A stretch of DNA of 50,405 bases from a virus (IMGVR_UViG_3300024231_000884:1-50405); one strand, 5' to 3'; positions 16,206 to 46,904 are shown, numbered from the stretch's first letter. Made by a program: numbers and translations. Notes: generated from the letters alone by a model not told the origin.

Positions 16206-17121
16206 CACATTTAGAGTTATTGATTGCGATATTATATATTTGTCATACGACGAGCCTAATGCAGAACAAAACTATGCAGACTTGTGTAAGAAAGTTCCGT
16301 GGGCAGAGCGTGTGCATGGTGTAAAAGGCAGTGATAGCGCACACAAAGCAGCCGCTAACAAATCAACTACTGATAGGTTTATTACAATAGACGGCGACAA
16401 TATTATTGATGAAAAGTTTTTGTCGCAAACAATGGACTTTGATGAAAATACAGATTTGACTAATAAAGTTATTAGTTGGACTGCACTTAATAGTATCAAT
16501 AATCTTACATACGGAAATGGCGGCATTAAGTGCTGGCCCAAACAACATGTATTAAACATGCGTACACACGAAAATGCACCCAACGATAATCCACATGCAC
16601 AAGTAGATTTCTGTTGGGATACACAGTACATACAAATGAATGGTACATACAGTACTATTATGAATAATGCTACACCGCATCAAGCATGGCGTGCTGGATT
16701 TAGAGAAGGTGTTAAAATGGCACTGGATCAAGGCATGCGTGTTAGTGTAGAGGACTTTCATAAAAATCACTGGAAGAACTTGCACCGTTTGTACATCTGG
16801 CTAATGATTGGTGCAGATGTTGAGAACGGCCGTTGGGCTATCTACGGCGCACGAGAAGGATTGTACAAGACAATGTGTACAGACTGGGACTTTGTAAATG
16901 TACGTGATTTTGATTGGCTCAATGAGTATTGGGATAGCAAAGATATGGATGAAGACCATATGGAAATAGAAACTGTTGGACTTGGGTATTCACTGATAGA
17001 CGAACTTGAGTTGCCTATTGCTGCTGAACCACTTGATGGAAATCAAAGTCTATTTTTTAAAACAGTATACAAAAATCCGGCACGTGATAACAGCAAACAA
17101 TTCTTAGATAGAGAACAATAA
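16198..17121 (+). CDS. Glycosyltransferase-like protein with DGD motif (307 aa)
   Basis: The 307-residue protein begins with a Rossmann-like strand (CDIIYLSYDEPNAEQNY), followed by RVHGVKGSDSAHKAA and then RFITIDGDN, whose DGD at residues 65-67 suits a metal-binding DxD. A later YGNGGIKCWPKQHVLNM segment is shared with the C-terminal domain of the gene at 21893, so the two belong to one family. The family resembles GT-A (GT2-like) glycosyltransferases; the substrate is unknown. GAGG lies just upstream of the ATG, and the stop overlaps the next ATG by one base. Confidence 0.6.
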   Translation: MANTFRVIDCDIIYLSYDEPNAEQNYADLCKKVPWAERVHGVKGSDSAHKAAANKSTTDRFITIDGDNIIDEKFLSQTMDFDENTDLTNKVISWTALNSINNLTYGNGGIKCWPKQHVLNMRTHENAPNDNPHAQVDFCWDTQYIQMNGTYSTIMNNATPHQAWRAGFREGVKMALDQGMRVSVEDFHKNHWKNLHRLYIWLMIGADVENGRWAIYGAREGLYKTMCTDWDFVNVRDFDWLNEYWDSKDMDEDHMEIETVGLGYSLIDELELPIAAEPLDGNQSLFFKTVYKNPARDNSKQFLDREQ

Positions 17122-18494
17122 TGGAACGCAGCGAAAGCGAAGAAATCAAGCGTATCGATAAGATTACGCAGGAAATATCTCCTACGTTTTGCTTTGCCAA
17201 GTGGTATCATGCAAACATCTATTTTCAGACAGGTGAAACACATAGTTGTTATCATCCTGCTCCTCACAAGATTGACGCAGCACCGCTATTAGAGAATCCT
17301 AGTGCTATACACAATACAGCACAAAAGAAAGCAGAACGTGCTGCTATGATGAAAGGTGAACAACCTAGTGGATGCAACTATTGCTGGAAGATTGAAGCAA
17401 TGGGCAAAGACTATGTTAGTGATAGAAAACAACGCAATCAAACTATCTTTTTCAAAGAACGCTTGAAAGCTGTCAAAGAAGGCGGTGCTGAGTTTGATGT
17501 TAATCCAGAATACTTGGAAGTTTCGTTTGGTAATGAGTGCAACTTCCGTTGTGGATATTGTCATCCAAAAGCCAGCAGTAGATATCATCAAGAGATCAAG
17601 CAACACGGTCCTTATACAAACGTAAAGAATCACAGATGCGATATTGACTGGTTTGAAATATTTGAAGAACAAAGCAATCCGTATTTAGATGCATTTTGGA
17701 AATGGTGGCCAGAGCTTAGTAAGGACTTGCATATTTTGCGTATTACAGGCGGTGAGCCTACAATACAACAAAGCACATACAAGTTGTTTGATATGCTGGA
17801 TGCAGATCCTAAACCAGAGTTAGAACTAAACTGCAACAGCAACTTAGGTGGCAAGCCAAAGCAGTTGGAAAAGTTTACAAACCGTGTGAATGACTTGTTG
17901 ACAAACAACAAGATTAGACGTTTTAAAATGTTTACAAGTATTGACACTTGGGGCAAACGTGCAGAGTATATTCGTGATGGGTTAGACATTGAAGTGTTTG
18001 AACGCAACTTAGATTACTTTATGCGCAACTGTGAAGCACCAATGGTTATTATGATTACATTTAATATTTTCAGTGTCACTACATTCCGCACATTGCTTGA
18101 AAAGATTCTTGAATGGCGTAAAAAATACAATGATGTAGAAACGCACAGATGGCAACGACTAGGGTTTGATACTCCGCATCTCAAAGAACCTCTACAGTAT
18201 GATATCAATATCCTGCCTAAAAACTACATGAGTTATATGCACGACCATTTGCAGTTTATCAAAGAGAACACAGATGATAATCGCAAGGATGCATTTAGCA
18301 CTATCGAGTATGAAAAGTTTCGTCGTGTAGTTGATTACATGGAATCTACAGAATATCCACTAGATAAAGTTATTCAAGGACGTAGAGACTTCCACAACTT
18401 CTTTGAAGAACAAGGGCGTAGACGTAATGTCGATCACGAACAAGTGTTTCCAGAGATGTCAGACTTTTTTGAACTTTGTAAGAAATACGTCTAG
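17121..18494 (+). CDS. Radical SAM protein with N-terminal twitch domain (A, 457 aa)
   Basis: The radical SAM CxxxCxxC motif is FGNECNFRCGYCHPKAS with cysteines at 140, 144 and 147, and the SAM-binding GGEP is at 210-213. A cysteine-bearing domain comes before the core: Cys24 (PTFCFAKWYHA), Cys43 and the pair Cys85/Cys88 (SGCNYCWK). This matches the 'twitch domain-containing radical SAM protein' family, in which an auxiliary-cluster domain lies N-terminal to the barrel. Reductive cleavage of SAM to a 5'-deoxyadenosyl radical is expected; the substrate is unknown. The gene overlaps its upstream neighbour as TAATG, and its last 36 bases overlap the convergent gene on the other strand. Confidence 0.85.
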   Translation: MERSESEEIKRIDKITQEISPTFCFAKWYHANIYFQTGETHSCYHPAPHKIDAAPLLENPSAIHNTAQKKAERAAMMKGEQPSGCNYCWKIEAMGKDYVSDRKQRNQTIFFKERLKAVKEGGAEFDVNPEYLEVSFGNECNFRCGYCHPKASSRYHQEIKQHGPYTNVKNHRCDIDWFEIFEEQSNPYLDAFWKWWPELSKDLHILRITGGEPTIQQSTYKLFDMLDADPKPELELNCNSNLGGKPKQLEKFTNRVNDLLTNNKIRRFKMFTSIDTWGKRAEYIRDGLDIEVFERNLDYFMRNCEAPMVIMITFNIFSVTTFRTLLEKILEWRKKYNDVETHRWQRLGFDTPHLKEPLQYDINILPKNYMSYMHDHLQFIKENTDDNRKDAFSTIEYEKFRRVVDYMESTEYPLDKVIQGRRDFHNFFEEQGRRRNVDHEQVFPEMSDFFELCKKYV

Positions 18495-19073
18495 TGCTTG
18501 TTTAGTTTCAGGCCACATATTTTCTTCTAGTTTTTTCATATAAAAATCAACGTCAACTTTCCAAAATGTTTGAAATGTTCCTTTGTACTCTAACTCTATA
18601 GGATCTTTTAAATATCCTTGGTTGTGCATAATCTTTGACCATATGCGATGTACTTTACTTTGACTTCCAGTTTCTAATGTATTTGTACTAATATATTGAG
18701 GATTTTCTAATCCAACATAGTGCATACACACAGGCGTAAGCATTTGACTAGTCCAATGATTCATAGGAGAGTGTCGATAGTTGTGTACAGCATGGGCACG
18801 TTCCCCGTCAACTATATCATTTAATACACATGTTCTAGCACTTATTCTATGTGCATTTTTTCCTAGTATGCCTAACTGTTGCAAACTATGGCTCACACTA
18901 GTGCCTACAATATTATCTCCATAGTATAATAAAAATAAGTTTGCATTTTCGTGTTTGTTAATATAATCTATTAACACAGTTTTATTATGATTGTTATAAA
19001 ACCCTTTAGCAGCAGCACCTTTATAAAAATCTGTTAGATCTTGTGTACCATTATACATTTCTAGTTTATACAA
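18459..19073 (-). CDS. Probable acyltransferase, GNAT-like (204 aa)
   Basis: The 204-residue protein has a weak resemblance to GNAT N-acyltransferases: a helix-rich start, then two strands around LFLLYYGDNIVGTSVSHSL (about residues 45-65) that fit beta-2/beta-4, and RISARTCVLNDIVDG followed by an aromatic helix. No clear acetyl-CoA Q/RxxGxG/A loop was found. The gene lies directly behind an adenylate-forming ligase and overlaps it by 8 nt, so a ligase that activates an acid and a transferase that delivers it is a plausible pair. The final 36 bp overlap the radical SAM gene on the plus strand. The assignment is tentative. Confidence 0.45.
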   Translation of the reverse strand: MYKLEMYNGTQDLTDFYKGAAAKGFYNNHNKTVLIDYINKHENANLFLLYYGDNIVGTSVSHSLQQLGILGKNAHRISARTCVLNDIVDGERAHAVHNYRHSPMNHWTSQMLTPVCMHYVGLENPQYISTNTLETGSQSKVHRIWSKIMHNQGYLKDPIELEYKGTFQTFWKVDVDFYMKKLEENMWPETKQALDVFLTKFKKV

Positions 19074-20127
19074 ATGTTTGCGTCCTTATAATCTTTTTTA
19101 GATTATTATCTACTTCTATTTTATCTACTGCCCGAAGTCTAAATCTTGGAATATATCGATGTTGTTCTACAAAATTTGCCATATCTTTTATATTGCCTGT
19201 ATAATATAATATACACTGATTTTTAATTTGTTGGCATAATGCAAGTTCTGCACCAGCTGCAACGGCCGCTTTTTCTATTTGTTCAGGGTATACTCTGATA
19301 GTATTTTGTTTAAACATATTGTGTTTGCGTCCGTTAATTGTAAATCTATTTCTGTCACCGTTAACACAGTCACCACTAATCCATATGTTAGATTGACTAC
19401 TCCATTTGCAAGCAATCTGCCCGTTTATAATATCAACTTCTGCACCCGGAGTAATACTATCTATAGTATATGTATTTTCTTCTTCGCTGTACAACACCAT
19501 AGGAGGTACTTCAGTACTACCGTATACATTGTATACTTTTCCTGGATTATGCTCACGTAGCTCGTCCAGCATACCTGTTGGTGTAAAATCACTTCCTGTA
19601 ATAACAGTTTCTAAACTACTATAATCTAGTGTCTTCCATCTATCGTGTTTGTGTAATACTTTCCAAACATTGGGTAATAATAATGTATGTGTCGGACGTA
19701 TTTCGTGTACACGATTTACATAGTCAATGCCTTTGAATGTTTCGATGTATAGTTCGCAATCTAGTTTTAATGCAAGGTATACACTTAGCACACTAAACGC
19801 AATACCGCGAGGAGAATAGTAACTGAGTATTTTACTATTTTTATCTAACCCTAGTGTTTTAATATTTGCATCTACAACTTGTTCTATGGTTTCTTTGGTA
19901 TGTCCAATGTTCTGCGGAAATCCGGTTGTACCGCTAGTACTTAGATTAAGAAACTGATCACCTCTATAGCCATAGCTATATCCATTTTGCCAATACCAGT
20001 TGTGTAATAGTTTAAGAACGTTCTGTTCCCAGTCTGGGTTGTTACTGTAACAATTCACAGGATTACTTAGTGTGTAATCGCTTATCCATTGTTCGGATAT
20101 TTGTTCACCGTCTATAAAAATTTTCAT
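19066..20127 (-). CDS. Adenylate-forming (AMP-dependent) acid ligase, short form (353 aa)
   Basis: The ANL-superfamily core motifs are present in order: STSGTTGFPQ at 63-72, VYGSTE ending at 206, ISGD at 250-253 and GRKHNMFKQNTIRVYPEQIE from 266, with NNLKKIIRTQ near the C-terminus carrying the likely catalytic lysine. The enzyme should activate a carboxylic acid with ATP to an acyl-adenylate. At 353 residues it is much shorter than the usual 500-600, lacking much of the N-terminal region. The P-loop ends in Gln where Lys is usual. The start at 20127 abuts the previous stop (TAA-ATG). The downstream acyltransferase-like gene is the probable acceptor partner. Confidence 0.8.
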   Translation of the reverse strand: MKIFIDGEQISEQWISDYTLSNPVNCYSNNPDWEQNVLKLLHNWYWQNGYSYGYRGDQFLNLSTSGTTGFPQNIGHTKETIEQVVDANIKTLGLDKNSKILSYYSPRGIAFSVLSVYLALKLDCELYIETFKGIDYVNRVHEIRPTHTLLLPNVWKVLHKHDRWKTLDYSSLETVITGSDFTPTGMLDELREHNPGKVYNVYGSTEVPPMVLYSEEENTYTIDSITPGAEVDIINGQIACKWSSQSNIWISGDCVNGDRNRFTINGRKHNMFKQNTIRVYPEQIEKAAVAAGAELALCQQIKNQCILYYTGNIKDMANFVEQHRYIPRFRLRAVDKIEVDNNLKKIIRTQTFV

Positions 20128-20346
20128 TTATTTCTCGTTGATACAAGCAGGAAAGTTTTTTTCAGTACCGTCGGTGATTTTTTTAGCAATCTTGTAAGGT
20201 GTAAATCCAAACATAAAAGGAAAAAATGCGTGTAATATGCCCATTATAAAAATACCAAGTCCCAAAAAACTATAACATATTGCTATAAAACAATGTGTAA
20301 AATAGTTAGTATTTGCTTTTTTTAAATGTTTCCAATCAAATAACAT
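20128..20346 (-). CDS. Small membrane protein, DUF6356-like (72 aa)
   Basis: The 72-residue protein has a polar start with KHLKKANTNYFTHC, one hydrophobic segment from about residue 18 to 47 and a charged C-terminus. The pattern of HLKK, NYFxH and HAFFPF matches my memory of the DUF6356 family of small bacterial membrane proteins. Its function is unknown. The ATG at 20346 follows AAAGGAGAG and a consensus sigma-70 promoter. It is the first gene of a three-gene set with the ligase and acyltransferase, so it may anchor or channel their product at the membrane (inference). Confidence 0.7.
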   Translation of the reverse strand: MLFDWKHLKKANTNYFTHCFIAICYSFLGLGIFIMGILHAFFPFMFGFTPYKIAKKITDGTEKNFPACINEK

Positions 20347-20383
20347 ACTTTACTCTCCTTTGAAGACTTTTTAATATGTTATC

Positions 20384-20412
20384 ATTATAGCATATTTTTT
20401 AGTGTAAGTCAA
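20384..20412 (-). promoter_or_regulatory. Strong sigma-70 promoter on the minus strand (TTGACT-17-TATAAT)
   Basis: On the minus strand TTGACT (20412-20407) and a perfect TATAAT (20389-20384) are separated by 17 nt. The predicted start is near 20377, leaving about 30 nt and an AAAGGAGAG site before the ATG at 20346. The -35 box lies inside the last codons of the fibre gene upstream, so the membrane-protein, ligase and acyltransferase set can be expressed apart from the late fibre gene. Confidence 0.8.
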
Positions 20413-21814
20413 CCCATGTTGTTCCGGTATATCCTTGGAACTTGTTATTACTAGTGTTAAACAATATCATACCTGCTTCTGCTGTCATACTATCTCTGTC
20501 AGCAAATGTAGTACCTCTAGCTTTAAATACTGGAACTTCTAATACGCCCTTGTTGTTGAACTCTAGTCTATTTTCTGTATTTGTAACATGTGTATTAGAC
20601 GCTGAACTTAGTTGTATACCAAAACTTGACGGCATAGTATTTCCAGTTGCAGCCGGTGTCCCGTCAACTTTAAATCCAAAAAGCCCACCACGTTTGTATT
20701 CAGTACCGTTGTATCCCCAGCTTTCGATACTTAATAGTTCGTCATTGTTTAATAATGATGTTTTAGAATTGCCTTCGCCTCTGTGTGCAAGAGAGTCAAT
20801 CGAGTCAGTTTGTATACTTAAACTATCAGCAATAATATTTACTTCGTCATTTTCATTACCAATGTTTACCTTATCATTTACGCCACTAATAAGTGTTCCA
20901 TTGCTTGAACCTGATACAATATTAATAAATCCATCTTCGCCTTGTGTGTCATATGCAACTGCTCCAACAAGTCTTCCCATAAAATCAGCTTTGTAAGTTG
21001 GCGAGCTTTCCAAGGACAATCTCATTACCGGTGTGCCATCGTAATGATTTAAGTTGGCTCTTACTTCTGTGTCAGCTCTAGTTGCTCCAATATTAACTAT
21101 AGGACCTCTTGCAACTGCATCATCTTCAGGATAAACAGGATGAGCAAGTCCACCGTAAAACTCCCATTGATCGTATCCACCAGTATTGTTGTGTCCAGTT
21201 AGTCGTGTAGCAATATCATCGCCTGGCTGTATAGCAAGTAACTCTCCAGTAAGATTTCCTGTAACATTGCCTGTTACGTCTCCAGTTACTCCGCCTATTA
21301 CTTCACCAGTATGTGTACCTGTAGTATCACCGAAAAAATCTCCGTAGCTAGTACCATTAAAGTCACCGTTAAATGTACCGTATATTACACTATCAGCAGT
21401 TATACTTCCTGTAAGCTCACCGTAAAACGATCCAGTAATACTGTCGGCATTAATAGATCTTGCTCCAGTATTAACAATAGCTTCGCCATTGCTATCTACA
21501 ATGTTTCCGACAACATCAGCAATAACCAATCCAGTATCACCATCAAATGCTAACCCCTCGTTGTCGTCGTATACACTACCAGTAACACTACCAGTTAGAT
21601 TGCCTGTGGAAGATAAAATAGTATTACCTTCTGTATCTTCAATGGTTCCAATCAAAGAACCATACAAGTTTCCAGTTTCAACATCAACTAATATAATACC
21701 GTCAACATCAACAACACTGGCTTTAATCTGTCCCTGCCAGCTATCAACAATAACTGTTTCGTCTGCTGTAATAATATCTAGTCGGTATGCTTCACCTGGT
21801 ATAAAATCGGTCAT
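20399..21814 (-). CDS. Fibre-like virion protein with TG-repeat shaft (471 aa)
   Basis: The start is placed at the ATG at 21814 (MTDFIPGEAYRLD) because AGAGGA lies about 10 bases upstream and the late motif is 24 nt away; a GTG at 21847 would add 11 residues. The first 200 residues are a chain of short glycine-threonine beta-repeats (GDVTGNVTGNLTG and similar), a shaft-like pattern. The C-terminus (GMILFNTSNNKFQGYTGTTW, then VDLH) is a common end of marine phage fibre proteins. It is the only structural gene on the minus strand here, set apart from the main block, so it may be an exchangeable fibre. Confidence 0.75.
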   Translation of the reverse strand: MTDFIPGEAYRLDIITADETVIVDSWQGQIKASVVDVDGIILVDVETGNLYGSLIGTIEDTEGNTILSSTGNLTGSVTGSVYDDNEGLAFDGDTGLVIADVVGNIVDSNGEAIVNTGARSINADSITGSFYGELTGSITADSVIYGTFNGDFNGTSYGDFFGDTTGTHTGEVIGGVTGDVTGNVTGNLTGELLAIQPGDDIATRLTGHNNTGGYDQWEFYGGLAHPVYPEDDAVARGPIVNIGATRADTEVRANLNHYDGTPVMRLSLESSPTYKADFMGRLVGAVAYDTQGEDGFINIVSGSSNGTLISGVNDKVNIGNENDEVNIIADSLSIQTDSIDSLAHRGEGNSKTSLLNNDELLSIESWGYNGTEYKRGGLFGFKVDGTPAATGNTMPSSFGIQLSSASNTHVTNTENRLEFNNKGVLEVPVFKARGTTFADRDSMTAEAGMILFNTSNNKFQGYTGTTWVDLH

Positions 21815-21837
21815 TTTTGTTGGTTCCTCTTCTCTAG

Positions 21838-21844
21838 TATTTAT
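21838..21844 (-). promoter_or_regulatory. T4-type late promoter motif ATAAATA (minus strand)
   Basis: The minus strand reads GATAAATAC, identical in nine bases to the site at 5400-5408. It lies 24 nt before the ATG at 21814, just upstream of AGAGGA. It supports late expression of the fibre-like gene and the choice of ATG over the GTG at 21847, since the GTG overlaps the motif. Confidence 0.6.
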
Positions 21845-21856
21845 CACATTCTGTTC

Positions 21857-23539: not shown

Positions 23540-24566
23540 ACTTTTAGACAGATTTGAAATACTAAATCCGCAAGATGAATATTTTGAAAACTTACGCCGT
23601 GTATACATTGATAATGATATAAGTGCTATATTAGAGTTTACATCAGATGAAGATTTGCGTAGTGCTATTTTAACAAAAAACATTCATAGTATTTTTCGTT
23701 GTATAGATAACAAACGTATAATTGGTGAAGCTGAAGACTTACGCAAGGCAGTCTTAGAAAAAAACTTACATAGTTTATTTAGATTACTGCCAGGAAACGA
23801 TGATTTAAGAAAAGCAGTCGTCGACGACAACATGCATAGTATTTTTAGATTAGTAGGCAACGAAGATTTAAGAAAAGCTACGATGGATGACAATATATGG
23901 AGTATACTTAGACTCTTAAAAGATAGAGATAGTACACATTTTGTTGATGCATTTAAAAACTTTGAGACTAACAATGTTCAAATAGACGAAGATTGTTTTA
24001 GTAGAGGACAGCTACAAAGTAAACTTTGGCTAGTAGATGAGCTTAAAAAATGTAATGTTGAACTAGGTAAAGTATTTTTATGTGCAGGGTGGTATGCTAC
24101 TCTTGCTACTATGTTATTTGAAAGTGATATAAAAATAGATTTTATTCGGAGTTTTGATGTAGATCCAGATGTTTGGAAAATAGCCGAAATATTTAACAAA
24201 CCTTGGGTTACTGATAACTGGAAATTTAAAGCCAGCACTGAAGACATACACGAAATAAGATTTGACGAACATATATACGATGTAAACAAAACAGACGGTA
24301 CAACTCAGAGATTGTGGACAGTACCAGATACTGTTATTAACACAAGTTGCGAACATATAAATAACTTTGATAGTTGGTATGACAGCATAACATACGGAAG
24401 TTTAGTAATAATGCAAAGTAATAACTATTTTGAAATCAACGAACATGTTAACTGTCATGAAACACTTGAAAGTTTTACAAAACAAGTATATCTCGGCGAA
24501 GAGCTGTACAGTGGCGAACTAGAACTAGAAAAATACAAAAGGTTTATGCGAATTGGATATAAGTGA
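23526..24566 (+). CDS. Tandem-repeat protein fused to a SAM-dependent methyltransferase-like domain (346 aa)
   Basis: The ATG at 23526 is preferred over the TTG at 23523; the gene overlaps its neighbour by 14 nt. Residues of about 35-145 contain four copies of a unit of about 22-33 residues: EDLRKAVxxxNxHSIFRLL. The C-terminal roughly 190 residues resemble a class I methyltransferase: VFLCAGWYATLATML as a motif I equivalent, then RSFDVDPDVWKIAE with the acidic strand that binds SAM, and VINTSCEHI near the catalytic position. Repeat units usually bind a protein or other polymer, so the fusion may target the methyltransferase. The methyl acceptor is unknown, and the family call is by pattern only. 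Confidence 0.6.
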   Translation: MEIYKLLDRFEILNPQDEYFENLRRVYIDNDISAILEFTSDEDLRSAILTKNIHSIFRCIDNKRIIGEAEDLRKAVLEKNLHSLFRLLPGNDDLRKAVVDDNMHSIFRLVGNEDLRKATMDDNIWSILRLLKDRDSTHFVDAFKNFETNNVQIDEDCFSRGQLQSKLWLVDELKKCNVELGKVFLCAGWYATLATMLFESDIKIDFIRSFDVDPDVWKIAEIFNKPWVTDNWKFKASTEDIHEIRFDEHIYDVNKTDGTTQRLWTVPDTVINTSCEHINNFDSWYDSITYGSLVIMQSNNYFEINEHVNCHETLESFTKQVYLGEELYSGELELEKYKRFMRIGYK

Positions 24567-40589: not shown

Positions 40590-41232
40590 AAATATTGCAG
40601 TATTTGGTTGTAGCTGGACTCAAGGAGTAAAATCAGAAGTTTTTGATAACTGGGTAGTTTGGTTAAGTAAGATGTATCCTCAGCATAAATTTTATAACTT
40701 TGCAGCAGCTGGAACTGCTATAACATATCATACTCATTTATTAGAACAAGTAATGCAAGATAAAACTTTTGATGTAAAACTTTTTCAAGTCACAAGTCCT
40801 GGAAGATTTACATGGTGGAAACCTCATAAGTTTAAAGAAATAATGTATCAAAAATATGACAACTATTATTGCCTAGAGGAAGATTATGGCAAGTTTGTCG
40901 ACCGTATTAATACAGGAACAATACTTTCAAACAAGTTTTTAGATTCTGATCGCAAAAAACACAAGTTTGGAGTAGAATATTACAAAAGATTGTGCGACGA
41001 TCAAGTTGATTTAGATCATCGTGTTTACATAAACTATGTAAAAAATAATGTAGATTTTTATTTCCATCATAGAAGATCATATGAATCTCATATTCCTAGT
41101 GTGTTCACTGAGTTAGGTGAAAAGCAGTTTTACAAATATGTAGTTGATGACGGCGAACATTTTGGTACAGAAGGAAACCAATGGGAAGCTAACTGGATTA
41201 AAGATCAGTTAACTGATAGGAACATATTATGA
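40579..41232 (+). CDS. SGNH-hydrolase-like protein (217 aa)
   Basis: The ATG at 40579, overlapping the previous gene by 11 nt, gives MKSKNIAVFGCSWTQG, an SGNH-like block I with Ser11. FAAAGTAITYHTHLLEQ near residue 38 may be the second block, and DGEHFGTEGNQWEANWIKDQL at the C-terminus provides the probable histidine of a DxxH-like pair. The FGCSWTQG start is shared in type with the protein at 38639, but the bodies differ. A role in deacylation or acyl transfer on the product of the cluster is inferred from the fold alone. Confidence 0.55.
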   Translation: MKSKNIAVFGCSWTQGVKSEVFDNWVVWLSKMYPQHKFYNFAAAGTAITYHTHLLEQVMQDKTFDVKLFQVTSPGRFTWWKPHKFKEIMYQKYDNYYCLEEDYGKFVDRINTGTILSNKFLDSDRKKHKFGVEYYKRLCDDQVDLDHRVYINYVKNNVDFYFHHRRSYESHIPSVFTELGEKQFYKYVVDDGEHFGTEGNQWEANWIKDQLTDRNIL

Positions 41233-42542
41233 CAAACACATTTTGTCCCATTCCTTGGATATTCCAAGCTGTCCGGTCCAATGGCGATCTCAGAGTATGT
41301 TGTCAGGCTAATGTAACAAAAAATAAAGGTGTAATACGCAAATCAGATGGCATAGCATATAACTCAGGAGTTGATAACTTACAAGAAGCACGTAATGCAG
41401 ATTTAATGAAAAATATACGTTCTAATATGCTACATGGTAACTGGAGCGAAGAGTGCGGGCGCTGTCAACGAGAAGAAGATAACGGACTAACAAGTAGAAG
41501 ACAATACGAAAATGTACAATGGAAATATAGTATTATTGATGCTTTAAAAGATACAGCTCCTGATGGTAGTATTGATATAGAAAAAACTCCAGTAATATAT
41601 TATGATTTGCGATTTGGCAACTTTTGTAATCTTAAATGCCGTATGTGTGGACCAAGTGACAGTAATGCGTGGTTTGAGGATTGGATTAAACTAACAGGTA
41701 AAAATACGTTTAGTGATACTAGTGGCGAAGTTACAATAGAAAACATAAATGGCAAACTTTGTGCTAGTGATTTTGATTGGCCTAACAACGAAAGTTTTTG
41801 GCAACAGTTAGAAGCAAATGTACATAATATTGAGCATGTGTATTTTGCTGGCGGCGAGCCTATGCTTATTGAAAGACATTATGAGTTTTTGCAAAAATGT
41901 ATAAATGTTGATGCTGCTAAAAATATGACAGTAGAATATAATACTAATATGAGTACGTTACCTCCTAGGGTAATGAAGTTATGGGAAAAGTTTAAGCATG
42001 TACGAGTAGGTGCAAGTATAGACGGCATGGGCAAGGTATTAGAATACCAGCGATATCCTGCAAAATGGGACAAGTTGCATAAAAACCTAACTACACTAGA
42101 TAGTATGCCTGAGAACATACAGAGTTGGTTTGCATTTACAGTTACAGCATATAATGTGTTTCACATGGTTGACTTTATGAAATGGAAACTGCAAGAAAGT
42201 AACTTTAAAAGAATAAGTGGAACCAAAAGTAAGCCAATAGTTAGTCATCATGTTGCACATAATCCTGAACATTTGAATATTCGAGTACTACCACCGGAGT
42301 TAAAAGTTATTGCTACTAATAATTTTAATGAGTTTGTACAATGGGTAGAAGATAACAAGTATCCAGACTATGTATTACGTTCTGCAAAACATATACGAAA
42401 TGGTATTGTAAAATATATGAATAGTGAAAGTTATTATGAAGAATATTGGGATTATTTTGTTACCTATACAAAGTCCTTAGATAAAATGAGAAACGAGTCA
42501 CTACTAGACGTCGAGCCAATGTTTAAAGGACATTTTAAATGA
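41229..42542 (+). CDS. Radical SAM protein with N-terminal twitch domain (M, 437 aa)
   Basis: The N-terminus has FCPIPWIFQAVRSNGDLRVCC (Cys6, 24, 25) and CGRCQREEDNGLTSR (Cys76/79). The radical SAM motif FGNFCNLKCRMCGPSDSNAW has cysteines 133, 137 and 140. The SAM-binding segment is FAGGEPMLIERHYEF. It is most like the protein at 28079 (shared HHVAHNPEHLNIRVLPPE). It has ATGA overlaps on both sides. Confidence 0.85.
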   Translation: MTNTFCPIPWIFQAVRSNGDLRVCCQANVTKNKGVIRKSDGIAYNSGVDNLQEARNADLMKNIRSNMLHGNWSEECGRCQREEDNGLTSRRQYENVQWKYSIIDALKDTAPDGSIDIEKTPVIYYDLRFGNFCNLKCRMCGPSDSNAWFEDWIKLTGKNTFSDTSGEVTIENINGKLCASDFDWPNNESFWQQLEANVHNIEHVYFAGGEPMLIERHYEFLQKCINVDAAKNMTVEYNTNMSTLPPRVMKLWEKFKHVRVGASIDGMGKVLEYQRYPAKWDKLHKNLTTLDSMPENIQSWFAFTVTAYNVFHMVDFMKWKLQESNFKRISGTKSKPIVSHHVAHNPEHLNIRVLPPELKVIATNNFNEFVQWVEDNKYPDYVLRSAKHIRNGIVKYMNSESYYEEYWDYFVTYTKSLDKMRNESLLDVEPMFKGHFK

Positions 42543-43714
42543 GTTTTGATACAATAGATTTACTTACGGGCAAGAACTTTCAAGTAACATGGGACTTAGG
42601 CCGCCGTTGTAACTACGACTGTAGTTATTGTCCGGCCCATCGTCATGACAACTTTAGTAAACACGCTACATTAGACGAACTAAAAGCAAATATAAACTTT
42701 TTGTTTGAATATATGGATGTATATATGTTATATAGAGAACACAAACATGCAGCTATAAGTTTTACAGGTGGCGAACCTACAGTAAATCCGCACTTTATTC
42801 CGTTTGCAAAATATTTAAAAGAAGAGTATGAAAAAAAATATGCAGATCGGTGGGGCGCTGTATTTTCATTAACTACAAACGGTGCCATGAGTGAAAAAAT
42901 GGGCAAGGCAGTTATGGAAAACTTTCGTCACGCAACAGTAAGTTATCATAGTGAAAGCGATAGTAAACTCAAACAACAAGTAAAAGATAGAATACTACAG
43001 TTTCATAATGACGGACCTTCTTATGAGTTTACATTAAACGTAAATGTTATGTTTCATGCAGCATATTTTGATGAATGCAAAGAACTTTGCGATTTCCTAC
43101 ATGATAATGGCATTAAATATGTTCCTCGTATTATTGGCGAAGAACCGGGTAGTGCAAGTGCTATGGCTCATCAGTATACTGACGATCAGTTAGACTACAT
43201 GAAAAACTATTGGAAGTATAAAAATGCCAGCTTAAATAATGACAAAGTTGATACTACACCAAAAGTTAAAAAAGAAAAACCCAAAGAAGAAACAAAAAAA
43301 GCAGGATACGAAATTGGTAGACCTTGTTGCGGTCAAAGAGAAATGTGTTTAAGTTCAAAAGGAAATAGTCGTAAAAGCACCTTTGTGGATTTTAGAGATT
43401 TTAAAGGATGGCATTGCAGTGTTAACTGGTTCTTCCTGCATCTAGAACAACAAACAGATAGTGTGTTTCATCATCAAACTTGTCAAGCAAAGTTTGATCA
43501 AACTAGGGGATCGATAGGAAAAATAAGTGAAGGCCATAAGATTATTGCAGACTTAAAACAAAAGTTAGAAACTGGTACTATGCCTACTATAATATGTCCA
43601 AAGCAAACTTGTAGCTGTGGACTGTGTGCTCCTAAAAGTGCATACAAAGAAAACTTCCAAGATGTTTTATATTCACATGTTGATAAAGTAGTATTTGAAA
43701 ATAATATTGATTAA
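42539..43714 (+). CDS. Radical SAM protein with C-terminal cysteine-rich domain (N, 391 aa)
   Basis: The protein is a close duplicate of that at 32481: both start MSFDTIDLLTGK, share GRRCNYDCSYCP (cysteines 24, 28, 31 here) and TGGEPTVNPHFIPFAKYLKE, and end in CPKQTCxCGLCAPKS. The difference is greatest in a Lys-rich linker near residue 240 (KVKKEKPKEETKK). A 43-bp identical stretch shows the closeness at DNA level. It is the last gene of the long run; the next gene starts after 35 nt with its own late-type motif. Confidence 0.85.
   Translation: MSFDTIDLLTGKNFQVTWDLGRRCNYDCSYCPAHRHDNFSKHATLDELKANINFLFEYMDVYMLYREHKHAAISFTGGEPTVNPHFIPFAKYLKEEYEKKYADRWGAVFSLTTNGAMSEKMGKAVMENFRHATVSYHSESDSKLKQQVKDRILQFHNDGPSYEFTLNVNVMFHAAYFDECKELCDFLHDNGIKYVPRIIGEEPGSASAMAHQYTDDQLDYMKNYWKYKNASLNNDKVDTTPKVKKEKPKEETKKAGYEIGRPCCGQREMCLSSKGNSRKSTFVDFRDFKGWHCSVNWFFLHLEQQTDSVFHHQTCQAKFDQTRGSIGKISEGHKIIADLKQKLETGTMPTIICPKQTCSCGLCAPKSAYKENFQDVLYSHVDKVVFENNID
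42782..42824 (+). repeat. 43-bp direct repeat, copy 2 (in radical SAM N)
   Basis: Identical to 32724-32766. Another 29-base identity covers the segment that encodes DSKLKQQVKDR in both genes, shortly downstream of the first. Confidence 0.75.
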
Positions 43715-43727: not shown

Positions 43728-43749
43728 TATTTTTAAGTAAGGAATAACT

Positions 43750-44349
43750 ATGGGCAATACTTTCAATAAAAGATATATTAACAGACGATCTACATTTAAC
43801 TTTGATCTTACCAAAGATTTTGATATGGATGCCTTCAAAACTGTAATAGAACTATTTTCTTCTAATATGCCCAGCAAACAACACCAGTTTCCGTATCGAA
43901 TAGATATTCTTGACTGGAGTGATAGAGAACTGAGAAAAGATATTATGTATGGATCTACGCCGAGAGAACAATCTATTCGTAACGCTAAGTTTAATAGTCA
44001 AGTTCTTGCACCAGTATTAGTTTGTTTTACACATCGCTTAGATCCTGAACCATATATTGCTCCTGTAGAAATAGGAATGGCACTAATGTCATTAACATAC
44101 TTACTTCAGTCTAATGGATTTCTAACTAGTTTTTGTCAATGCATCGAAGATCCTAATAGTCTTGGTACACGTATCACTGGAAAAGACAATACCACGCTGC
44201 GAGTGATTTTACCAGTAGGCCAACACGCCTATCCTAAAGACACACTCACTATTCCAAATCCGTTTGAAGAAGAAGAACTGTGCTTAAAACTAAATCCTAT
44301 ACATCAAAATACTCCTAATATAAAATATCAGATTGACACACGTAAATAG
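43750..44349 (+). CDS. Nitroreductase-like flavoprotein (199 aa)
   Basis: The 199-residue protein resembles the nitroreductase fold in outline: SSNMPSKQHQFPYRIDI at about residues 38-54 corresponds to the FMN-binding SKQN loop of the gene at 48714, FNSQVLAPVLVCFTH matches NSQVLANLVLAFE there, and IGMALMSLTYLLQSNGF fits the long central helix. FMN-dependent reduction or dehydrogenation is expected. Family members in this size class also act as dehydrogenases in peptide or cofactor maturation. AAGGAA precedes the ATG. The end of the gene overlaps the -35 box of the next promoter. Confidence 0.6.
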   Translation: MGNTFNKRYINRRSTFNFDLTKDFDMDAFKTVIELFSSNMPSKQHQFPYRIDILDWSDRELRKDIMYGSTPREQSIRNAKFNSQVLAPVLVCFTHRLDPEPYIAPVEIGMALMSLTYLLQSNGFLTSFCQCIEDPNSLGTRITGKDNTTLRVILPVGQHAYPKDTLTIPNPFEEEELCLKLNPIHQNTPNIKYQIDTRK

Positions 44350-44361: not shown

Positions 44362-44367
44362 ACAAGT

Positions 44368-45480
44368 ATGAATGAAGATTTAAAATGGTCCAACTATGAT
44401 TTTACTAAGATACCTTTCGACGACATTGTCAGCGTTGGCCAACGCACTTTGTTGTATCGCGATATATTTACTGTCAGCTGGTTACTTGGACGGTTCTGCA
44501 ACTACAAATGCTCCTACTGCTGGCCTTACGCCCGCAGTGACCGTAAAGACCACCGTCCTACAGAACTATGCTTACGGACCATAGATGAAATAAAGAGGCA
44601 AGCACGTGAAAACGGATTTAATAGTTATCATTTTAGTCTTAGTGGGGGTGAGCCTACTTTCCATCCTGGCTACTTGGACATTCTACAGCATCTGGCTGAT
44701 GACGTAGACAACACCAACTACACCAGTGTACATATGACATCTAACTGTAGTCGCAACATGGCATGGTTTGAAAAGTATGTAGAAGCAGTCAAGCCATTCC
44801 ACCGTGCCAGTATTACTGCAAGTTTACACACAGAACACTTAAATACAGTTGAGAAGATGCAAGACTTTGCAGATAAACTAATCTTCTGTCAGGAGCACGA
44901 TGTTCAAGTTACAATCAATATGGTTATGGTTCCAGACTGGTTTGAAAGAGATTGGGAAAACGCCTTGTTCTTCCATGAGCAAGGAATCAACGTTACACTC
45001 AAACCGCAATCAGACCCTACTGCTAGTAGGGTGGTTGATGGATACAAACCGGAGGACCTAAAACGTTTGCACAATGGTATGCCACAACGTGCATATACAG
45101 AAAGTAAACGCAAGTGGTCAGGCCGGCCGAGTCCTAGTTTTGATATACCTAAAGATATGATGTACATGCCTGATGCTAGTGTGCCTTGGCATATGCAAGT
45201 AGAATTTAGAGATTCCAAAGGTGAAGCATGGTATATGGATCAAGCAGAAAGATTTAATGCTTTTAACTTCAATAACTTTAAAGGATGGAGTTGCAACGCA
45301 GGCTATCAAGGTATTATTATACGTGAACCTGATGGTAGTGTAAAGCGTAGTTATAGTTGCCATGATGCTCCGCTAGGCAATATCGAAACAGGCTTTAAAC
45401 TGTTTGACAAAGCTATGCCTTGTGTTACAGGCAGTTGTGTTAGTAGTGCCGATAGTAAGATACCAAAGAGAAAGGTATAA
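44368..45480 (+). CDS. Radical SAM protein with C-terminal cysteine-rich domain (O, 370 aa)
   Basis: The cluster motif GRFCNYKCSYCWPYARSDR has cysteines 44, 48 and 51, and LSGGEPTFHP places GGEP at 93-96. The C-terminus has GWSCNAGYQG, REPDGSVKRSYSCHDAP and MPCVTGSC, matching the layout of the proteins at 32481 and 42539 in a shortened form. The 5' part is clearly richer in G+C than its surroundings: 34 of 60 bases at 44521-44580, against 17 of 60 at 43741-43800, which may point to a separate origin. The start is at the predicted transcription start. The next gene overlaps by one base. Confidence 0.85.
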   Translation: MNEDLKWSNYDFTKIPFDDIVSVGQRTLLYRDIFTVSWLLGRFCNYKCSYCWPYARSDRKDHRPTELCLRTIDEIKRQARENGFNSYHFSLSGGEPTFHPGYLDILQHLADDVDNTNYTSVHMTSNCSRNMAWFEKYVEAVKPFHRASITASLHTEHLNTVEKMQDFADKLIFCQEHDVQVTINMVMVPDWFERDWENALFFHEQGINVTLKPQSDPTASRVVDGYKPEDLKRLHNGMPQRAYTESKRKWSGRPSPSFDIPKDMMYMPDASVPWHMQVEFRDSKGEAWYMDQAERFNAFNFNNFKGWSCNAGYQGIIIREPDGSVKRSYSCHDAPLGNIETGFKLFDKAMPCVTGSCVSSADSKIPKRKV

Positions 45481-46904
45481 TGGCCAACTTTATTATTTTT
45501 GCAGGTATGGAAGAACCAGCGACATATGCCGTACGTTCAGGCGGCCAGTATCAACTTGCTTCCTGGCTACGTTCCTTTGGTTATACTGTAAAAGTAATAG
45601 ATTTTTGTTTTAAAATTAGTCCTAATATTTTAGAAGAAATTGCAAATAAACATATTGATGACGATACACTTGCATTTGGAATAAGTACTACTTTTTGGAA
45701 TATTGATCTAGTTACACATAATGGATTAACTATAGGCGGAATTCATTGTCCAAAATGGGTAAAATATTTAAAGAAAACTTTTCAAAAAACAAATCCTAAT
45801 ATTAAATGGATACTCGGCGGATCCAACGCAGCATCTCCTTTATTAGAAGATGACGACTGGATTCGTATATATCAGTTTGCTGAAGACGAAACACTTGCAA
45901 TGTTAGATAGATTATCTAACAAAATAGAAGTACGCCCACTGTTTAATATACAAAACTTTACAAGAAAATATCATGACAGTGATGCTATTCAGCCTTATGA
46001 AACGTTAAGTATTGAGATAAGTAGAGGATGTATATTTAAATGTAAGTTTTGTCAGTTTCCTTTGATTGGTAGAAAAAAAGGAACTAACATAAGGCGAGAA
46101 GAAGATATCCGTACAGAGCTATTACAGAATTATGAACAGTTTGGCACTACAAAATATTATTTTAGTGATGATACATTTAACGAAAGTCTAGATAAAGTAC
46201 AAATGATTCATCGTATTAGTAAGTCTTTGCCATTTGAGTTAGAATATGTAGCTTATATTAGAATAGATTTATTAGCTTCGTATCCTGAAATGATAGATTT
46301 GTTACCGGAATCAGGATTGCGTAGTGCATTTTTTGGTATCGAAACATTCCAAGAACAAGGTGCAAAAGCTATCGGTAAAGGCTGGAATGGAAAATATGCC
46401 AAAGACTTTTTGTTAGAACTAAAAGAAAAATGGAAAGATAAAACAAACTGGTGGATGGGAATGATTGTAGGTCTTCCTGGTTGGAATAGAGAACAAGAAG
46501 AAAAAGATTTACAATGGTTAATAGACAACGATATGAGTTGCTGGTGGCATTGGGCATTATATATTAATCCTATTAACGCAGAAAACGGAGTACAGTTTGT
46601 AAGCGAGTTTGAAAAAAACTATGAAAAATATGGATATGAGTTTACAGAAGACAACCTTGTTAACTGGGTTAACGGAAATTTAGTACATACTGAGCTACAA
46701 CAAGCAGCAATCGAAATAAATGACAAGTCTTTTAAATATAAAAAAGTTTCTGGATTTCGAATAGGAGAGTTTAGTACAACTTTAAGATGTGATATGAGAG
46801 ATTTAGTTAATGTAAAGGAAATAGATGTTCCCCGTGAAACATTATTAAATAATACAAAACAGTTTGTAAATAAATATATTGAATGCCAGTTGCAGGAAAT
46901 CTAA
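45480..46904 (+). CDS. Radical SAM protein with cobalamin-binding-like N-terminal domain (P, 474 aa)
   Basis: Residues 1-145 resemble the Rossmann domain of B12-dependent radical SAM enzymes: FIIFAGMEEPATYAVRSGGQY, SWLRSFGYTVKVIDF, LAFGISTT and WILGGSNAASP. A clear DxHxxG is absent, as is usual in this class. The radical SAM motif EISRGCIFKCKFCQFP has cysteines 184, 188 and 191. Later phrases (FSDDTFNESLDKV, SAFFGIETFQEQGAKAIGKG) fit the B12-type elongated barrel. Such enzymes methylate unactivated carbons or rearrange rings. It is the only member of its class here. The ATG overlaps the previous stop (TAATG). Confidence 0.8.
   Translation: MANFIIFAGMEEPATYAVRSGGQYQLASWLRSFGYTVKVIDFCFKISPNILEEIANKHIDDDTLAFGISTTFWNIDLVTHNGLTIGGIHCPKWVKYLKKTFQKTNPNIKWILGGSNAASPLLEDDDWIRIYQFAEDETLAMLDRLSNKIEVRPLFNIQNFTRKYHDSDAIQPYETLSIEISRGCIFKCKFCQFPLIGRKKGTNIRREEDIRTELLQNYEQFGTTKYYFSDDTFNESLDKVQMIHRISKSLPFELEYVAYIRIDLLASYPEMIDLLPESGLRSAFFGIETFQEQGAKAIGKGWNGKYAKDFLLELKEKWKDKTNWWMGMIVGLPGWNREQEEKDLQWLIDNDMSCWWHWALYINPINAENGVQFVSEFEKNYEKYGYEFTEDNLVNWVNGNLVHTELQQAAIEINDKSFKYKKVSGFRIGEFSTTLRCDMRDLVNVKEIDVPRETLLNNTKQFVNKYIECQLQEI
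46870..46876 (+). promoter_or_regulatory. Possible T4-type late promoter motif ATAAATA inside a gene
   Basis: AATAAATATAT lies in the last codons of the B12-type radical SAM gene, 36 nt before the ATG at 46906. Spacing is like the other late motifs, but A+T-rich coding sequence can contain it by chance. Confidence 0.35.

What the first reader, a model, noticed from the sequence alone, without database searches (positions are those of the whole stretch)
17121..46904. Sixteen radical SAM genes within 30 kb of a phage genome
Sixteen proteins carry CxxxCxxC and GGEP-like motifs: at 17121, 24770, 25846, 27018, 28079, 30340, 32481, 34166, 35311, 36318, 37438, 39405, 41229, 42539, 44368 and 45480. 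They fall into four subfamilies (N-terminal twitch; short SPASM-type; C-terminal Cys-rich; B12-type). Radical SAM genes occur in marine T4-like phages, but I know of few arrays this dense. The variety suggests a multi-step modification pathway, or a set of variants each acting on a different position or substrate.
Basis: partly seen in the sequence, partly recalled or inferred. Interest (0 to 1): 0.9.

Follow-up and report, generated by a model that had tools for sequence, protein, structure and literature searches.

The report
Radical-enzyme island beside phage tail fibres
A little-known group of giant marine phages carries, next to its tail-fibre genes, a fixed set of sugar-transfer and radical-chemistry enzyme genes with a changing set of further radical enzymes in the middle, probably to build an unusual chemical coating whose nature is still unknown.

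Summary
In detail: all sixteen proteins are radical SAM (rSAM) enzymes by Pfam and keep CxxxCxxC. Two further records carry 15 of the 16 at about 100% identity. Not a recent tandem amplification: every one has a nearer relative in other contigs than in the window; dN/dS is 0.03-0.11 in the ten genes where it could be computed. The island has a backbone in nearly invariant order: fibre-like proteins, two GT8-like and two further transferase-like proteins, an MTase-like protein, and rSAM types A, B, A, C. Inside sit variable cassettes: 1,111 distinct rSAM sequences in the fetched viral loci form 232 clusters. The phages look like uncultured jumbo phages distantly related to PA5oct and Phosso. 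Anchor genes 24553 and 44368 match none of 50,697 phage records at 1e-5. Orthologous B-A-C trios lie on Bdellovibrionota contigs; one chromosomal island also carries a fibre-protein homologue and both GT8-like genes. Most likely this is a decoration pathway acting on tail fibre or host surface. Sugar versus peptide chemistry is unresolved: folds tie.

The parts
62..5404 (+). C-terminal part of a giant tail/virion protein (cut by the contig end)
   Evidence: 43% to a 4,572-aa protein of sister record G003; about 25% to the virion structural protein of phage Phosso
5431..6033 (+). tail-region protein
   Evidence: 74% in G003, 66% in G002; 55% in Sinorhizobium phage Phosso
6033..11516 (+). three tail collar/fibre-type proteins (6033, 8019, 9981)
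   Evidence: Pfam Collar domain in 6033, E 1.4e-9; all three are similar to one Phosso protein
11536..13610 (+). two fibre-like proteins (11536, 12501), candidate carriers of the decoration; fibre role inferred from place and relatives
   Evidence: number of relatives varies among phages; homologue on the chromosomal island L356, profile E 9.5e-39 among the cellular proteins searched
13664..14011 (+). small conserved protein of the backbone
   Evidence: followed by 14008 in 40 adjacent pairs; homologue on L356, E 1.3e-26
14008..14829 (+). GT8-like glycosyltransferase
   Evidence: family profile (A8) matches glycogenin, E 2.6e-6; no Pfam match at 0.01
14819..15661 (+). second GT8-like glycosyltransferase
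   Evidence: same family profile; follows 14008 in 49 adjacent pairs
15663..16205 (+). backbone protein of unknown function
   Evidence: conserved position: followed by 16198 in 32 adjacent pairs
16198..17121 (+). transferase-like protein (DGD motif), probable glycosyltransferase
   Evidence: conserved family in phages and Bdellovibrionota; no solved-structure match at 0.1
17121..18494 (+). rSAM type A, backbone
   Evidence: PF04055 E 3.9e-5; NF033640 299.5 bits; directly behind 16198 in 22 of 22
18459..21847 (-). inverted block: unknown protein, short AMP-binding protein, DUF6356 protein, fibre-like repeat protein
   Evidence: AMP-binding E 6e-18, DUF6356 E 2.2e-8; the other labels by eye
21893..23539 (+). 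transferase-like protein with degenerate extra copies of its domain (by eye)
   Evidence: Glyco_tranf_2_3 E 9.5e-4, below cut-off; before 24770 in 91 of 91 pairs
23523..24566 (+). MTase-like protein 'm' with N-terminal short repeats
   Evidence: family conserved in phages and Bdellovibrionota; MTase label is by eye only, no solved-structure match
24553..24777 (+). 74-aa conserved protein 's'
   Evidence: 298 matching stretches in IMG/VR, none in 50,697 phage records at 1e-5
24770..25849 (+). rSAM type B, backbone
   Evidence: PF04055 E 1.5e-6; its cluster is found in 118 loci
25846..27021 (+). rSAM type A, cassette
   Evidence: PF04055 E 6e-5, SPASM E 1.2e-7
27018..28082 (+). rSAM type B, cassette
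   Evidence: PF04055 E 0.0011
28079..29476 (+). rSAM type A, backbone
   Evidence: PF04055 E 5.4e-8; model pLDDT 92.3; its cluster is found in 123 loci
29466..30347 (+). PP-loop ATP pyrophosphatase-like protein, cassette
   Evidence: PF01171 E 7.8e-4, below its cut-off; family profile matches PP-loop enzymes weakly, best E 0.0064
30340..31674 (+). rSAM type A, cassette
   Evidence: PF04055 E 8.4e-9
31667..32491 (+). second PP-loop protein
   Evidence: family flanked by rSAM genes in 77 loci
32481..33635 (+). rSAM type C, cassette
   Evidence: PF04055 E 2.1e-9; 68% to 42539
33619..34173 (+). short-chain dehydrogenase-like protein
   Evidence: PF00106 E 0.007, below cut-off
34166..35311 (+). rSAM type A, cassette
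   Evidence: PF04055 E 2.2e-10
35311..36318 (+). rSAM type B, cassette
   Evidence: PF04055 E 1.3e-8, SPASM E 7.8e-7
36318..37430 (+). rSAM type A, cassette
   Evidence: PF04055 E 1.8e-14
37438..38646 (+). rSAM type A, cassette
   Evidence: PF04055 E 2.7e-8, SPASM E 6.4e-7
38639..39412 (+). SGNH-hydrolase-like protein (by eye)
   Evidence: 80% in G003, 88% in G002, same place; no Pfam match
39405..40589 (+). rSAM type A, cassette
   Evidence: PF04055 E 2.1e-11, SPASM E 2.2e-8
40552..41232 (+). SGNH-hydrolase-like protein (by eye)
   Evidence: DUF1574 E 7.8e-6, below cut-off
41229..42542 (+). rSAM type A, cassette
   Evidence: PF04055 E 7.5e-9
42539..43714 (+). rSAM type C, cassette
   Evidence: PF04055 E 1.3e-10
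43750..44349 (+). nitroreductase-related protein (weak)
   Evidence: falls into the cluster of 48714; no Pfam match of its own
44368..45480 (+). rSAM type C, backbone and 3' anchor of the array
   Evidence: PF04055 E 7.8e-15; at least 594 matching stretches in IMG/VR, best 80 loci 80-100% identical; none in 50,697 phage records at 1e-5; model pLDDT 88.6
45480..46904 (+). rSAM type D
   Evidence: PF04055 E 5.9e-17; no B12-binding match
46906..50030 (+). oxygenase-like proteins (46906, 47628, 49368), short SDR-like protein (48197), nitroreductase (48714)
   Evidence: Asp_Arg_Hydrox E 1.9e-8 in 47628; Nitroreductase E 3.5e-8 in 48714; the other labels by eye

Best explanation
The island is a biosynthetic and decoration locus of an uncultured jumbo-phage lineage, sited next to the tail-fibre genes. 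A fixed backbone (fibre-like proteins, two GT8-like and two further transferase-like proteins, an MTase-like protein and rSAM types A, B, A, C) makes and attaches a common chemical group. Variable cassettes, mostly between the core rSAM genes (other rSAM enzymes, PP-loop ATPases, oxygenases, nitroreductases, SDRs), then add further radical or oxidative edits, so that each phage carries a different version. The most likely target is the fibre-like protein encoded next door (11536/12501 family), through a sugar attached by the GT8-like enzymes; a glycan of the host surface is second. SHOWN: rSAM identity, conserved order, variable interior, purifying selection where computable, kinship of sister contigs to jumbo phages, chromosomal counterpart. 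INFERRED: that the enzymes act in series, that the product is a decoration, the carrier, and sugar rather than peptide chemistry.
For: Order is almost invariant: among 16198, 17121, 21893, 23526, 24553, 24770 and 28079 no pair is ever reversed except three, with 1, 3 and 3 reversals (82, 59 and 95 in order). Against 44368 the reversals are 0 to 3, except 28079 with 71 in order and 29 reversed. Those 29 are loci of a second phage arrangement in which C comes before A; C-m-B-A is read directly in L037 and L039, and GT 21893 and C are direct neighbours in 16 of 16 pairs. The fibre-to-transferase part is also ordered. In 69 of 71 loci with at least 8 kb upstream of 44368, three or more rSAM genes lie upstream. 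The backbone rSAM clusters occur about once per locus: 123 in 123, 122 in 118, 116 in 116, as expected of distinct steps and not of copies. dN/dS is 0.03-0.11 in 10 of the 14 genes tested; in 4 synonymous change was saturated. GT8 assignment. Chromosomal island L356, behind rplS, trmD and pheST (by eye), carries homologues of 11536 (E 9.5e-39), 13664 (1.3e-26), both GT8-like genes (35%) and 16198 (47%) in the window's order, with A- and C-type rSAM genes. Among 146 cassette representatives are UDPG_MGDP_dh, CTP_transf_3, GDP_Man_Dehyd and Epimerase, also Trp_halogenase, P450 and APS_kinase, one member each. DegT is in 6 of 21 array records, CTP_transf_3 in 3 of 21, PqqD/RRE in 0 of 21. Relatives of the A enzymes sit in or near polysaccharide genes in L153 (Wzt-rSAM fusion), L157, L355 and L357, all read by eye.
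Against: No modified product is known and no structural protein has been shown to be a substrate. The fold comparison does not separate sugar from peptide enzymes: for 28079 DesII, CteB, BlsE and SkfB tie at Z 11.3-11.7; for 44368 BlsE, EpeE and SkfB tie at 15.7-16.3, and Foldseek alone puts peptide maturases first for 28079 and viperin first for 44368. Most cellular neighbours show no glycan genes: Glycos_transf_2 is in 4 of 133 sampled neighbours of cellular rSAM genes. DegT is absent from 15 of 21 array records. Only one chromosomal island (L356) links fibre protein and rSAM genes; it lies at a contig end, and its gene at the place of 15663 is not a significant match in the wider search. 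The 16198/21893 and 'm' families match no solved structure. Phosso, in the same slot, points rather to protein modification. The phages' host is unknown.
Confidence: 0.45

Rival explanations
1. Direct post-translational modification of the fibre or another virion protein by SPASM/twitch-type rSAM enzymes (thioether, epimer, C-C crosslink), as in RiPP maturation, with the transferases working beside them.
For: Best Foldseek matches of 28079 are SkfB and CteB (sactipeptide maturases), then anSME; many of NCBIfam's weaker matches are peptide maturases. Phage Phosso carries 4 rSAM matches of other SPASM-type families in the same slot behind its giant tail protein (a fifth annotated rSAM gene lies further off), and between them a protein ending in a Cys/His/Ser-rich tail.
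Against: PqqD/RRE in 0 of 21 array records (records may be fragments). No small variable precursor was found: the one small ORF, 24553, is conserved over its whole length. No Cys-rich end was seen among the printed C-termini (at most 25 distinct tails per family) of the 9981, 11536, 12501, 13664 and 15663 families. PP-loop, nucleotide-sugar and cytidylyltransferase genes are not expected.
Confidence: 0.25
2. The product changes the host's surface glycan during infection (receptor masking, superinfection exclusion), not the virion.
For: This is the reading offered for the glycosyltransferases in the host-recognition cluster of pelagimyophages (PMC7029224, passages). Cellular relatives lie in or near surface-polysaccharide genes in L153, L157, L355 and L357, read by eye.
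Against: No polymerase, flippase or exporter was found in the window by Pfam (the window is only part of a genome). The backbone runs on from the tail genes, and a fibre-protein homologue travels with it on one chromosome.
Confidence: 0.2
3. A hypermodified DNA base or a tRNA base (such as a 7-deazaguanine derivative) is made; rSAM, PP-loop and transferase genes recall QueE, QueC and base glycosylation.
For: phrog_2076 'QueE-like' matches 5 of 16; phrog_1550 'QueC-like' matches 29466 at E 1.3e-5.
Against: 31667 matches no NCBIfam family at 0.001. Tet_JBP in 0 of 21 records, although no control rang, so this counts for little. The great variety of cassettes and their place beside tail genes do not fit one base.
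Confidence: 0.07
4. A hypervariable store of acquired genes without a joint pathway, each cassette acting alone in host metabolism.
For: 121 of 232 rSAM clusters are singletons (some may be fragments at contig ends); one phage outside the lineage (L253) carries 44368 without an array.
Against: Fixed order of the backbone and purifying selection on cassettes; the B-A-C trio recurs in bacteria.
Confidence: 0.1

Closest known systems
Host recognition cluster (HRC) of pelagimyophages (Zaragoza-Solas et al. 2020, PMC7029224; passages read)
   Different: Probably another phage group: 14 of 20 long array records have the ATPase of sister record G003 at 58-81% identity, whose nearest sequenced relatives are jumbo phages. 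Pelagimyophage Mosig has 2 rSAM matches against 12-21 in 15 of 20 array records. The passages seen describe no fixed rSAM core.
rSAM cluster of Sinorhizobium phage Phosso (PV764938.1)
   Same: Same slot: behind a giant virion protein, a 5431 homologue (55%) and a collar-type protein.
   Different: Its rSAM proteins resemble other families (DynA/PapB-like), and among the 16 of 25 CDS of the stretch that I compared there was no blastp match at 1e-3 to the backbone transferases, 'm' or the B-A-C core, apart from one 94-residue match to 36318.
B-A-C rSAM trios on Bdellovibrionota contigs (found here, all from MAGs)
   Same: In L097, L101, L103, L112, L120 and L137 orthologues of 44368 (57-70%), 28079 (58-63%) and 24770 (42-46%) lie side by side, often with 'm' and 16198/21893-like genes.
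   Different: Smaller rSAM sets and no fibre gene seen, except in L356; sporadic: the C orthologue is in 6 of 129 genomes of one class. The L110 trio is only 23-43% similar.
NCBIfam NF033640 N_Twi_rSAM
   Same: 17121 passes its cut-off; 15 of 16 match at E <= 0.001.
   Different: 24770 (B) and 44368 (C) fall far below the cut-off (38.6 and 46.7 against 170); the family name gives no function.
Virion glycosylation of mycobacteriophages (Freeman et al. 2023; known only as cited in a passage of PMC12619734)
   Same: Phages with glycans on their own capsid and tail proteins.
   Different: rSAM cassettes are not mentioned in the passage seen.

Membership tests
Radical SAM superfamily | CxxxCxxC and PF04055 domain | tested here: met
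   16 of 16 at E <= 0.0011, 12 of 16 over the gathering score; motif 16 of 16; two models with rSAM folds
NF033640 N_Twi_rSAM | score above the curated 170 bits | tested here: inconclusive
   met for 17121 (299.5), not met for 24770 (38.6) and 44368 (46.7); scores of the other matching members not shown
B12-dependent radical SAM (45480) | B12-binding domain | tested here: not met
   only Radical_SAM found by Pfam at E <= 0.01
RiPP biosynthesis | RRE (PqqD-like) domain | tested here: not met
   PF05402 in 0 of 21 array records; control rang in 3 of 14. Records may be fragments, and RREs too divergent for this model are not excluded
RiPP biosynthesis | small precursor peptide with variable core | tested here: inconclusive
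   24553 conserved throughout; ORFs below 55 aa were not surveyed
Surface polysaccharide (O-antigen) locus | polymerase/flippase or ABC exporter | tested here: inconclusive
   none among Pfam matches of the window, but the window is part of a genome
Pelagimyophage HRC | pelagimyophage genome, island between VrlC and gp14 | tested here: inconclusive
   VrlC and gp14 not sought; two proteins of sister record G003 have jumbo phages as nearest sequenced relatives
Arenbergviridae (PA5oct) | marker genes close to PA5oct | tested here: inconclusive
   48-51% in two proteins of G003; PA5oct has no rSAM match; no genome-wide tree made
DNA base hypermodification | Tet/JBP oxygenase | tested here: inconclusive
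   0 of 21, but no control genome rang
7-deazaguanine (QueC/QueE) pathway | QueC match of the PP-loop proteins | tested here: inconclusive
   31667: no NCBIfam match at 0.001; 29466: weak phrog_1550

The most novel reading that the evidence does not exclude
A so far undescribed pathway of three cooperating radical SAM enzymes (types B, A, C) with an MTase-like partner and glycosyltransferase-like proteins, shared by jumbo phages and Bdellovibrionota, makes a new class of covalent decoration. The phages have expanded it into a combinatorial chemistry of some 200 tailoring rSAM families that diversifies their fibres or their host's receptor, so that receptor binding evolves through enzyme cassettes as well as through protein sequence.
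Probability: 0.33. Interest if true: 0.92.

Novelty: new variant of a known kind. Interest (0 to 1): 0.76.

Why it matters
Radical SAM enzymes catalyse some of the most difficult reactions in biology. The viral loci fetched here alone hold over a thousand distinct ones, most around one conserved genomic backbone, and two anchor genes of that backbone match no sequenced phage in the collection searched. If the island decorates fibres or receptors, it is a chemical arm of the phage-host arms race and a source of new enzymes. Phage Phosso, with a small rSAM cluster in the same slot, is in culture and gives a way in; the bacterial trios are so far known here only from MAGs.

Tried and rejected
Megablast of the array against 50,697 phage records: no match. 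Iterated profiles of single rSAM families converged on all rSAM proteins and could not tell subfamilies apart; four competing profiles were used instead. The small ORF 24553 as a RiPP precursor: rejected as main idea, because it is conserved throughout and in L253 lies apart from any rSAM array. Cys-rich tails on fibre homologues: none among the printed tails. Fold comparison as judge between sugar and peptide chemistry: tie; enzyme families not listed there are not excluded. Tet/JBP search: uninformative, no control rang. Host assignment: not reached. Tandem duplication: rejected. Thirteen of 16 have a best hit of 22-33% within the window against 59-95% elsewhere; 45480 has none within (86% elsewhere); the pair 32481/42539 is 68% within, with 81% and 75% elsewhere; hits of 95% or more were left out of this count. 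Contiguous same-strand A, B, C triples in cellular loci: 7 of 61 loci against a shuffled mean of 2.05, 2 of 2,000 shuffles as high; loci were fetched with an A-type query, and of the 72 loci eleven were left out as suspected viral or duplicate contigs. Pair counts were not cleared of contigs fetched twice; one search counts each pair of distinct sequences once. The E-values first printed for L356 were for a search of one protein (6.9e-42, 9.4e-30 and, for 15663, 1.3e-6); the wider search in the same call gave 9.5e-39 and 1.3e-26 and no match for 15663 at 1e-3, and I use the latter. L354, L358, L359 and L360 repeat the contigs of L100, L137, L101 and L103. Clusters include proteins cut by contig ends. 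The neighbours scanned are 133 of 163 candidates, at most three per locus. Records with array genes were chosen for having them, so rSAM counts say nothing about phages at large; G008/G009 look like near-copies. The moraphage paper (PMC12619734; abstract, outline and passages) describes another aquatic jumbo lineage; 'radical SAM' does not occur in its main text; identity with this lineage was not tested. Labels given by eye, not by a call: SGNH hydrolases, amidinotransferase, MTAN nucleosidase, PLP enzymes, MTase for 23526, the oxygenase and SDR labels of 46906, 49368 and 48197, the housekeeping and polysaccharide genes of cellular loci.

Full report
WHAT WAS CHECKED. The window is a 50,405-base linear IMG/VR record with closely packed genes, most in one direction. 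All sixteen named proteins match Pfam PF04055, twelve above the gathering score, and all keep CxxxCxxC. I sorted them by eye into four types and used these as seeds of competing profiles: A with an N-terminal Cys domain (9 in the window), B with GDP or GDF in place of GGE (3), C with C-terminal cysteines (3) and D (1). The B12 label of 45480 was not confirmed. Two further IMG/VR records carry 15 of the 16 (all but 17121, beyond their ends) at about 100% identity, and there two more rSAM matches follow downstream, so the array is not an artefact of one assembly and is larger than the window.

HOW THE ARRAY AROSE. Thirteen of the sixteen are only 22-33% identical to their nearest relative in the window but 59-95% to relatives in other contigs; 45480 has no relative in the window; the pair 32481/42539 is 68% (81% and 75% elsewhere). 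So the array was assembled from separate lineages and not by recent tandem duplication. dN/dS is 0.03-0.11 in 10 of the 14 genes tested; in the other 4 synonymous sites were saturated. The genes are kept as working proteins, cassettes included.

A FIXED BACKBONE AND A VARIABLE INTERIOR. In viral loci fetched with queries 39405/A2, 44368 and 24553, the backbone genes follow the order 11536-13664-14008-14819(14837)-15663-16198-17121-21893-23526-24553-24770-28079-44368. Gene 17121 follows 16198 directly in 22 of 22; 23526 and 24553 are neighbours at the median (n = 35), as are 24553 and 24770 (n = 55). Between 28079 and 44368 lie 2-11 genes (median 7, n = 52) with up to 8 rSAM genes (limited by 10-kb flanks). 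In the window this interval holds 15 genes, nine of them rSAM. In a second phage arrangement, 29 loci, C comes before A; C-m-B-A is read directly in L037 and L039. The distinct rSAM sequences of the viral loci number 1,111, in 232 clusters at 40% identity, 121 of them singletons, some of which may be fragments; three clusters (28079, 24770, 44368) stand out with 116-123 members. Genes flanked by rSAM genes on both sides, by cluster and number of loci: PP-loop 77, SDR/hydroxylase 57, transferase/'m' 42, nitroreductase 34, a PLP-like family 26, oxygenase-like families 20, 18 and 18 (names partly by eye). A Pfam scan of 146 representatives adds Trp_halogenase, P450, Aminotran_3, UDPG_MGDP_dh, CTP_transf_3, GDP_Man_Dehyd and APS_kinase, one member each (only 25 of 68 families shown).

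WHICH PHAGES. Two proteins of sister record G003 have as nearest sequenced relatives the Pseudomonas jumbo phages of the PA5oct type and Sinorhizobium phage Phosso, at 44-51% identity. One of the two, an ATPase, is present at 58-81% in 14 of 20 long array records; five had no match and one a 28% match. These 20 records are 124-328 kb long and carry 12-21 rSAM matches in 15, 9 in two, 5 in two and 1 in one. PA5oct has none, Phosso 4, pelagiphage Mosig 2. 44368 gave at least 594 matching stretches in IMG/VR, and 24553 gave 298; neither matched any of 50,697 phage records at 1e-5. Other array members do match sequenced phages weakly: 39405 matches 16 records below 60% identity, 17121 two, 24770 one. 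The record with one rSAM match, G012 (L253), has only the 28% ATPase match and carries 44368 alone beside a nitroreductase-like gene.

THE BACTERIAL COUNTERPART. Of 72 cellular loci found with an A-type query, several on Bdellovibrionota contigs hold B, A and C side by side. In L097, L101, L103, L112, L120 and L137 the orthologues are 57-70% (44368), 58-63% (28079) and 42-46% (24770) identical, often with 23526-like and 16198/21893-like genes; L110's trio is only 23-43% similar. All are MAG contigs. Contiguous triples occur in 7 of 61 loci against 2.05 expected by shuffling labels. A tree of the C enzyme joins six bacterial sequences and four of the second phage arrangement on one well-supported branch (100/99), apart from the window's group; the bootstrap had not settled, some branches are long, and two further bacterial rows stand far off. 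The C orthologue is sporadic: 6 of 129 genomes of one class. One island, L356, lies behind rplS, trmD, pheS and pheT on a contig that elsewhere carries ribD, tgt and secDF (by eye). It holds A, a 16198-like gene, C, then homologues of 11536 (E 9.5e-39), 13664 (1.3e-26), 14008 and 14819 (35%), a gene at the place of 15663 whose match is not significant in the wider search, 16198 (47%), then A, A and C genes. It ends at the contig end, so a prophage remnant is possible. It still shows fibre-like protein, GT8-like genes and rSAM genes together outside a phage contig.

WHAT IT DOES. The backbone includes two proteins whose family profile matches glycogenin, a GT8 enzyme (E 2.6e-6). Two models were predicted with confidence (pLDDT 92.3 and 88.6). 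Their nearest solved folds tie between enzymes of sugars and nucleotides (DesII, BlsE, viperin) and peptide maturases (SkfB, CteB, EpeE, anSME). PqqD/RRE was found in 0 of 21 array records, which speaks against ordinary RiPP chemistry. DegT is in 6 of 21 and CTP_transf_3 in 3 of 21, which speaks for sugars in part of the phages only. Cellular relatives lie in or near polysaccharide genes in a few genomes (L153, L157, L355, L357; read by eye), but most sampled cellular neighbours show nothing of the kind. Phosso, in the same slot, has other rSAM families and a protein with a Cys/His/Ser-rich tail between them, a lead for direct protein modification. I therefore commit to a decoration pathway sited with the fibres, with sugar chemistry somewhat ahead of peptide chemistry, at 0.45.

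WHAT IS KNOWN. [quoted passage not shown] A survey of the East Australian Current found rSAM enriched among phage genes of the Tasman Sea (PMC7150976, passages). The Baltic survey mentions rSAM domains in one passage (PMC9301287). Two jumbo-phage overviews hold none of the rSAM terms searched (PMC13282480; PMC7824862). My ten text searches (listings, and passages of six papers) showed no description of a dense array with a fixed core, or of the Bdellovibrionota trio. The library holds open-licence papers only, so this is not proof of absence. I call it a new variant of a known kind.

Noticed in passing
L356:6067-18513 (G085:C21): On a bacterial contig, fibre-protein homologue, GT8-like genes and rSAM genes stand together in the phage order behind pheST, at a contig end; prophage remnant or domesticated system.
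   Followed up: partly
L346:7272-14396 (Sinorhizobium phage Phosso): Cluster of SPASM-type rSAM genes behind the giant tail protein; a protein among them ends in a Cys/His/Ser-rich tail. Homologues of part of this set (58%, 39%, 33%) lie in the Oligoflexia contig L136.
   Followed up: partly
G004:C1:33099-36385 (L173): Beyond the window's end the same array continues with two more rSAM genes (28-31% to 45480).
   Followed up: no
L253:9989-11116 and L256: A phage outside the lineage carries 44368 (85%) without an array, in L253 beside a nitroreductase-like gene; the 24553-like gene lies between other genes some 7 kb away.
   Followed up: partly
window 23523-24566 and 21893-23539: Short repeats in the N-terminal half of 23523 and degenerate repeated copies of the transferase domain in 21893 (by eye); the proteins differ in length between phages.
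   Followed up: no
L313:13271-13663, L017:4190-4579, L261:411-746, L075:10150-10611: Stand-alone ORFs that look like the Cys-rich ends of rSAM proteins: split enzymes or separate cluster-binding subunits.
   Followed up: no
L016:15233-15781 and relatives (8 loci): A nucleosidase-like gene (MTAN by eye) inside arrays, which could remove 5'-deoxyadenosine, the by-product of rSAM enzymes.
   Followed up: no
L153:6175-8685: An rSAM domain fused to what reads like a Wzt ABC-transporter ATPase in a polysaccharide locus of a Zetaproteobacterium.
   Followed up: no
L125, L127, L131: Contigs in bacterial MAGs (Rickettsiales, Acidimicrobiaceae, Chloroflexi) with 12-13 rSAM genes in 21 kb; probably phage contigs binned with bacteria.
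   Followed up: no
window 18459-21847 (minus strand): The only inverted block of long genes in the window: short AMP-binding protein, DUF6356 protein, fibre-like repeat protein and an unknown protein.
   Followed up: no
L101, L103, L110, L120, L137: Genes that look like HTTM/vitamin-K carboxylase-like membrane proteins (by eye) near the rSAM trio of Bdellovibrionota.
   Followed up: no
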